The notes beneath the pieces were generated by a model, which was not told where the DNA came from, ran no database searches, and worked only from the letters and a program-made list of their open reading frames with translations. DNA of 64,000 nucleotides, from assembly GCA_002011615.1 (NCBI GenBank), contig MTOH01000013.1, positions 18,772-82,771 of the forward strand. Direction: 5' to 3'. This DNA comes from Candidatus Hydrothermus pacificus (GTDB lineage: Bacteria; Hydrothermota; Hydrothermia; Hydrothermales; Hydrothermaceae). Positions 20,078-21,378 of this stretch are shown one piece after another (position 1 is the first letter of the stretch; each line of letters opens with the position of its first letter). Position numbers and translations under genes: made by a program.

Positions 20078-20106
20078 AAAAACTAAAAATATACAGGAGG
20101 TGTGAA

Positions 20107-21378
20107 ATGGTGGTAATTGATATTCTTGTTATGTTTCCTATAATAATTTCCCCTTCCCCTGAGTCTAATCCAAAAATTCAAAAAAGAAATAGTGGTTATA
20201 TGATTGTCTATGAGATGGAAGATAATAAAGTTTACGGTGCCGATTTGACCTAGGATGGGGCATTGATGGATACCTTTAAAATAGCAGAACCTTTGTGGGA
20301 TGGTTGCCTGGAAAAGCCGGATATTGCCAGAATCGTAAATGATACCTTTTTTGTTGTGTATCAATATACTCCTCATATAAACTCTTCGGACACGGTTTAC
20401 TATTCGGTTCTTGGTAGAAATATCTTTTATCAGGACTCAGTATTTATGGGTCCAGAAATAATTCTCTATCAGGGAATTAATAACTACTATTCTACTCATG
20501 GGTACAAGAATCCCTTTATTGCAGGAGGAGATTCCTCCTACCTTTTACTTGTCCGGGATTTTACGATAAATCCTGCATTTGTTCAGAGCATATATTCCTT
20601 TCTTAATAAGACTGGTAGTATAGTATATGAGTACAGTGCCAATCCAGGAACAGGATTATATTCCCTGGATTTCGAATCATTTTTTTATATAGTGGACCAT
20701 CTTGAGCCAGGATGGGGTGGTGATACAATGTATCTTTTTAAATTTGATGAGTCGGGTAATCTTGTAGAAAAAAGTTCTTTTTATGACCTGGTTACTACAG
20801 AGTTTTTCCCTCAGATTCAGGAAGAAAATAATTATATTGCTGTTGCCTTTCCTTATAATTCTCTTCTGATTCATTTCTTTCATACAGTTGATACTTTTAT
20901 CACCACTTTTAATACCTATTCACCTTCAGATGTTATCTTTAAACTCCTTTCAACCCCTTATTATTTTTATCTTTTTGTGGTAAATAATGACACTTTGAAG
21001 GGACAGAGATTTTTCTTCAACGGAACGCCCAAAGATACATCCTTTATCACGATTTATATCGAAGATTCTCCTTTTAACAACCTTGATGGGATATGGGATG
21101 GAACGAGGTTTTTTCTGATTTATGAAAAAAATAATGATATTTACGGTTTATTTGTTGATACAACCATGTCTGTGAAGGTGGATGAAAAATATGTAAAGAA
21201 GCAAGAAAATATAAGGCTTAGTTCTCTGATTTTGAGAAATTTAAAATTTTTTAACAACAAGGTATTTTCACTTTACACCATTACCGGTAACAGGATAGAT
21301 AGTAATTTACCGCCATCTGGAATTTATTTGATGAGAGACAGGAAAGGGAGGAAAACAAAGGTTCTTATCTTTCGATAA
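20107..21378 (+). pseudogene. Secreted protein with C-terminal sorting domain, interrupted by in-frame TAG
   Basis: The track lists only 20263-21378, but an ATG at 20107 directly after AGGAGGTGTGAA opens the same frame and runs 48 codons to a TAG at 20251-20253; the frame then continues 374 codons. Text on either side of the stop joins into one family pattern: YMIVYEMEDNKVYGADLT, stop, DGALMDTFKIAE, like the VVWEDNR.IYGARVD.DG..LD repeats of secreted proteins. The C-terminus (FSLYTITGNRIDSNLPPSGIYL) resembles a FlgD/type IX-type sorting domain. So this is one gene with a single nonsense codon: a pseudogene, a phase-like allele or a base-call error. Confidence 0.75.

What the first reader, a model, noticed from the sequence alone, without database searches (positions are those of the whole stretch)
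20107..21378. Single in-frame TAG inside an otherwise intact secreted-protein gene
Seen: a strong AGGAGG site and ATG at 20107 open a frame that meets one TAG at 20251 and then continues 374 codons with a C-terminal sorting domain. The residues around the stop join into the repeat pattern of secreted proteins (KVYGADLT, stop, DGALMD). TAG ends pilT and rplE here, so the code is not reassigned. The options are a recent nonsense mutation, programmed readthrough, an on/off allele in the population, or a sequencing error.
Basis: partly seen in the sequence, partly recalled or inferred. Interest (0 to 1): 0.6.

Follow-up and report, generated by a model that had tools for sequence, protein, structure and literature searches.

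The report
Amber stop inside exported-protein gene
A gene for an exported repeat protein in an uncultured bacterium is cut by one TAG stop codon, and the same genome holds at least six other exported-protein genes cut by TAG in the same CTAGG context, most likely because of a mutation-prone DNA motif rather than a changed genetic code.

Summary
AGGAGGTG and ATG at 20107 open a coding frame that meets TAG at 20251-20253 and then runs 374 sense codons to TAA. Relatives in the phylum align across the stop: 84 of 84 repeat alignments have a sense codon there, at a variable site of the motif D-IYGARVx-x-DG-VLD (Gln commonest). So the true start is upstream and the TAG is a lesion or a recoded codon. 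It is not isolated. A census of about 99.7% of the 2.06 Mb assembly found nine in-frame C|TAG|G codons in seven exported or outer-membrane genes (three in one 3,370-codon gene, one in an MsrAB gene at a conserved Gln) and none among 244 equivalent sites in other genes (p = 2e-4). CTAG is 12-fold depleted genome-wide and almost never ends a gene. RF1 is present, no CTA-anticodon tRNA was found, and TAG ends about 12% of genes. Best reading: recent C-to-T nonsense changes at CCAGG, tolerated only in dispensable exported genes. Base-calling error at a modified CCAGG, and Gln-inserting UAG readthrough, remain open. Reads or peptides would decide.

The parts
20095..20102 (+). Shine-Dalgarno-like AGGAGGTG, 4 nt before the ATG
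   Evidence: read directly
20107..20250 (+). pre-stop part: ATG, hydrophobic N-terminus (MVVIDILVMFPIII...) running directly into the first repeat; 48 codons
   Evidence: homologue L105 shows the same signal-peptide-to-repeat arrangement; coding score +0.11
20249..20254 (.). CCTAGG palindrome holding the stop; CTAG is 12-fold depleted in this genome
20251..20253 (+). in-frame TAG (amber) stop, at a variable position of the repeat motif D-IYGARVx-x-DG-VLD
   Evidence: 84 of 84 aligned repeats have a sense codon
20254..21378 (+). 374 sense codons continuing the frame, then TAA 21376-21378
20263..20268 (+). nearest possible restart codons TTG and ATG after the stop; a product from here would lack the export signal
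   Evidence: read directly
21166..21375 (+). C-terminal sorting-tail-like region (ends SGIYLMRDRKGRKTKVLIFR)
   Evidence: weak match to tails of three own-genome proteins; 69 Por_Secre_tail matches in the genome

Best explanation
The gene encodes an exported repeat protein (signal peptide, degenerate BNR-like blade repeats, C-terminal sorting tail) that carries a young premature amber codon. The codon most likely arose by a C-to-T change in a CCAGG pentamer, a context that has turned Gln codons into TAG repeatedly in this genome. Translation normally stops after 48 residues, so the protein is off in the sequenced majority type; it may be a fixed pseudogene or one allele of a mixed population. 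Shown: intact frame on both sides, sense codons in relatives, the CTAGG context, and restriction of the set to exported genes. Inferred: that the change is a real mutation, that it is recent, that termination is efficient, and that the cause is a mutation-prone (perhaps modified) cytosine.
For: Relatives have sense codons at the site. Nine in-frame C|TAG|G codons against 396 remaining C|CAG|G sites, versus about two TAG at the roughly 7,900 other CAG codons (p about 7e-11; numerator hand-assembled). All nine lie in genes with export signals or outer-membrane barrels: 9/161 against 0/244 in other genes, p = 2e-4, as expected if nonsense survives only in dispensable genes. Nine of 12 internal TAGs are preceded by C but only 1 of about 193 terminal TAGs, so these ambers have escaped the long-term CTAG depletion and should be young. 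The same exported class also decays by frameshift (four tail genes) and by TAA. RF1 present, no suppressor tRNA found. Genes ending in TAG show no extra back-up stops.
Against: No read data, so a real mutation is not proven. No Dcm-like cytosine-C5 methylase (only a 22-bit PF00145 match) and no Vsr were found, so the cause of a CCAGG hotspot is missing. Trp codons in the mirrored context (CC|TGG to CC|TAG) show 0/140 changes in exported genes against 9/161 for Gln (p = 0.004), which plain nonsense does not predict. One gene has three such ambers at three of its four C|CAG|G sites while only 1 of 15 other CCWGG sites changed. Some CTAGG codons in housekeeping genes seem to replace residues that I recall as conserved, which would fit miscalls.
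Confidence: 0.57

Rival explanations
1. Systematic base-calling error: a modified cytosine in CCAGG is miscalled as T in the assembly, so the true gene is intact.
For: CCAGG/CCTGG errors made up about 70% of nanopore consensus errors with default models in Klebsiella (PMC6591954). CTAG sites here are strongly enriched for CTAGG/CCTAG; missense and synonymous CCWGG changes are equally frequent, about 3%; a few CTAGG codons stand where I recall conserved Pro or Gly (PPDK VPPGFTI, LysA RINPG, AAA GEPG, from memory).
Against: Errors would not avoid non-exported genes (0 of 244 C|CAG|G and 0 of 170 CC|TGG changed to TAG, about 7 and 5 expected at 3%). Only one of four frameshifts in tail genes lies at a long homopolymer. 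No Dcm-like methylase found. The sequencing platform is unknown.
Confidence: 0.2
2. UAG in a C-UAG-G context is read through with Gln often enough that exported proteins tolerate it, so the full-length protein is made at some level.
For: Gln sites but not Trp sites carry TAG in exported genes (9/161 against 0/140, p = 0.004). In MsrAB the TAG stands at a Gln kept in all eight two-domain homologues aligned across it. Three ambers in one gene with 1257, 509 and 1585 open codons around them. Eleven of 12 internal TAGs are followed by G, a base reported from classical suppression work to favour amber suppression (own knowledge).
Against: No CTA-anticodon tRNA among 46; both Gln tRNAs have ordinary five-pair anticodon stems; RF1 present; no back-up stop enrichment after terminal TAG; no clear case in 392 kb of two order-mates; the genome also has TAA, TGA and frameshift lesions that readthrough would not rescue. 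The Gln-versus-Trp test was post hoc.
Confidence: 0.15
3. Reinitiation: a shorter protein starts at TTG 20263 or ATG 20266 just after the stop, so the gene is merely mis-started.
For: Start codons lie 4-5 codons after the stop with GGATGGGG just upstream.
Against: The product would lack the export signal and half of the first repeat; homologues include the pre-stop half; the perfect SD is at 20095.
Confidence: 0.04

Closest known systems
Amber hotspots at methylated CC(A/T)GG in E. coli (lacI; own knowledge) with CTAG scarcity attributed to very short patch repair (PMC5337935)
   Same: C-to-T at CCAGG turns a Gln codon into TAG; CTAG is strongly depleted genome-wide
   Different: No Dcm-like methylase and no Vsr found here; the hits stand in an assembly consensus and are confined to exported genes
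Nanopore consensus errors at Dcm motifs (PMC6591954)
   Same: motif CCAGG/CCTGG
   Different: here the stops occur only in exported genes, which errors do not predict
UAG-to-Gln recoded genomes (some phages and ciliates, own knowledge)
   Same: TAG at Gln positions
   Different: RF1 kept, no CTA tRNA, TAG still terminates about 12% of genes
Por_Secre_tail (PF18962) repeat/propeller surface proteins
   Same: signal peptide, blade repeats, C-terminal tail; 69 tail matches in this genome
   Different: this gene's tail is divergent and has no Pfam hit; no orthologue in relatives

Membership tests
Nonsense-interrupted gene (young pseudogene or off-allele) | homologues have a sense codon at the stop and extend upstream of it | tested here: met
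   84 of 84 aligned repeats; distant homologues only, no orthologue found
Nonsense-interrupted gene (young pseudogene or off-allele) | no other lesion in the frame | tested here: met
Nonsense-interrupted gene (young pseudogene or off-allele) | stop present in the DNA of the population | not testable with these tools
   no reads available
Genome-wide UAG reassignment | suppressor tRNA with anticodon CTA | tested here: not met
   46 tRNAs, none; genome 95% complete
Genome-wide UAG reassignment | RF1 lost and TAG absent as terminator | tested here: not met
Pyrrolysine UAG decoding | pylS and tRNA-Pyl | not tested
   pylS was not searched; no CTA tRNA among the covariance-model hits
Programmed readthrough | stop conserved at the same place in orthologues | tested here: inconclusive
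   no orthologues of the target; MsrAB homologues have Gln, not TAG; 392 kb of order-mates show no clear case
Por_Secre_tail / T9SS cargo | PF18962-type C-terminal tail | tested here: inconclusive
   no Pfam hit, weak match to tails of own proteins; an SprA_N match exists in the genome

The most novel reading that the evidence does not exclude
In this lineage UAG in a C-UAG-G context is read as glutamine at useful efficiency without a dedicated suppressor tRNA, and exported proteins have begun to use it: an early, context-limited step of stop-codon capture.
Probability: 0.13. Interest if true: 0.78.

Novelty: new member of a known kind. Interest (0 to 1): 0.42.

Why it matters
A lone in-frame TAG would be ordinary. 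A set of nine, all in CTAGG, all in exported genes, in a genome that otherwise avoids CTAG, is a compact natural test of three things: hotspot mutation with selection against nonsense, modified-base sequencing artefact, or partial stop-codon capture. It also warns that automatic annotation of such assemblies will report exported proteins as truncated or missing.

Tried and rejected
Synteny: in order-mates the gene divergent from clpC is an M1-type peptidase or NAD kinase, so there is no orthologous locus. Orthologues of the target and of the TAG-interrupted M6-like gene: none. AlphaFold2 on the read-through sequence: pLDDT 34, not used. First idea of a TAG-only signal was dropped after finding TAA, TGA and frameshift lesions. 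Suppressor tRNA and four-pair anticodon-stem tRNA-Gln: not found. Back-up stops after terminal TAG: no excess. Many candidate double frames were adjacent genes. Organism name not resolved: the ClpC scan returned only about 55% matches. An earlier count said 9/9 MsrAB orthologues keep Gln; recounted it is eight (the ninth row is the gene itself).

Full report
OBSERVATION. The sequence reads as described. AGGAGGTG (20095-20102) precedes ATG 20107; 48 codons; TAG 20251-20253; 374 sense codons; TAA 21376-21378. Both halves score as coding on the genome's codon model while all other frames are negative. The stop is the centre of CCTAGG (20249-20254); the 64 kb window has three CTAG where about 169 are expected.

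WHAT THE GENE IS. No Pfam family matches and no orthologue was found among 60 relatives. With the tail left out, a search of 147 genomes of the phylum gave 32 weak matches, most of them spanning the stop and all in open frames. Aligning those proteins gave 84 repeat alignments across residue 49. The motif is D-IYGARVx-x-DG-VLD and the stop falls on its variable position: Gln 20, Pro 17, Thr 14, Lys 8, others. These are distant, individually weak matches (E 1e-4 to 1e-2), persuasive by number and by motif. Some relatives, such as L105, run from signal peptide straight into the first repeat as here, so the ATG at 20107 is a credible start. The C-terminus resembles tails of other exported proteins of the genome, which has 69 Por_Secre_tail matches and an SprA_N match. 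It is an exported repeat protein of unknown partner.

NOT A CODE CHANGE. RF1 is present. Of 46 tRNAs none has anticodon CTA. TAG ends 199 of 1597 ORFs of at least 150 aa. Genes ending in TAG have no excess of back-up stops. pylS was not searched.

NOT ALONE. I scanned 2.05 Mb of the 2.06 Mb assembly for stops flanked by coding sequence in one frame and read the candidates by eye. Clear interruptions with TAG in C|TAG|G: C9:39022 (the target); C1:218295 (BNR-type); C2:302195 (BNR-type); C8:23072, 26846 and 28376 (one 3,370-codon lipase-like exported gene); C11:34959 (MsrAB); C13:64710 and C8:34747 (outer-membrane barrels). C4:141051 (membrane protein) is possible. Other contexts: C11:45562 (M6-like), C3:35151 (propeller), C2:315244 (katG). 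TAA: C3:46270 (M16), C2:324171 and 324822 (FG-GAP). TGA: C2:183608 (TPR). Family labels here are by eye from the translations. Four tail genes are frameshifted, only one near a six-base homopolymer. In MsrAB the TAG stands at a Gln present in all eight two-domain homologues aligned across it.

THE CONTEXT. CTAG occurs 109 times against 1356 expected, mostly as CTAGG or CCTAG. In ORFs, C|CAG|G has become C|TAG|G at 8 of 160 sites in genes with a crude export signal, 9 of 161 with C8:34747, and at 0 of 244 in other genes (Fisher p = 2e-4). Missense and synonymous CCWGG changes are about 3% in both classes. Mirrored Trp sites show 0/140 and 0/170. Internal TAGs are preceded by C in 9 of 12 cases, terminal ones in about 1 of 193. 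These tests were designed after seeing the pattern, the export classifier is a hydropathy rule, and the counts are small; they should be read as leads of moderate strength.

INTERPRETATION. Real, young C-to-T changes at CCAGG, removed by selection in needed genes and surviving in dispensable exported ones, explain the motif, the class restriction and the youth. They do not explain the Gln-over-Trp bias or the missing methylase. Miscalling of a modified CCAGG is a documented artefact (PMC6591954) and some housekeeping CTAGG codons look suspicious, but it does not predict restriction to exported genes. Gln readthrough predicts Gln over Trp but lacks a decoder and a shared case in order-mates (392 kb only). 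For the target itself these cannot be separated without reads or peptides.

VERDICT. Observation confirmed; the interpretation list was reasonable; the best ranking is nonsense mutation or off-allele 0.57, artefact 0.20, readthrough 0.15, restart 0.04. Individually ordinary, collectively worth a read-level check.

Noticed in passing
G000 C8:23024-33136 (L290, L291 and neighbours): A 3,370-codon exported lipase-like gene with three in-frame TAGs, all in CTAGG, the first directly after the signal peptide; frame otherwise intact.
   Followed up: partly
L238:14155-15345 (C11:34155-35345): MsrAB fusion gene with an in-frame TAG at a Gln conserved in all eight two-domain homologues aligned.
   Followed up: yes
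G000 whole assembly: CTAG is at 0.08 and GATC at 0.13 of the Markov expectation, with no Vsr found; CTAG is also scarce in order-mate G003 but much less so in G002.
   Followed up: partly
L064:101-171 (C1:271437-271507): tRNA-Ala(CGC)-like gene with an irregular anticodon arm that ARAGORN reads as four-base anticodon cgca.
   Followed up: no
G000 C2:315244, C3:46270, C2:183608: Single in-frame stops in katG (TAG), an M16 peptidase (TAA) and a TPR protein (TGA).
   Followed up: partly
L080:6902-7054 (C5:156902-157054): Orphan sorting-tail fragment with one TAG and no gene in front: a relic of a lost exported gene.
   Followed up: no
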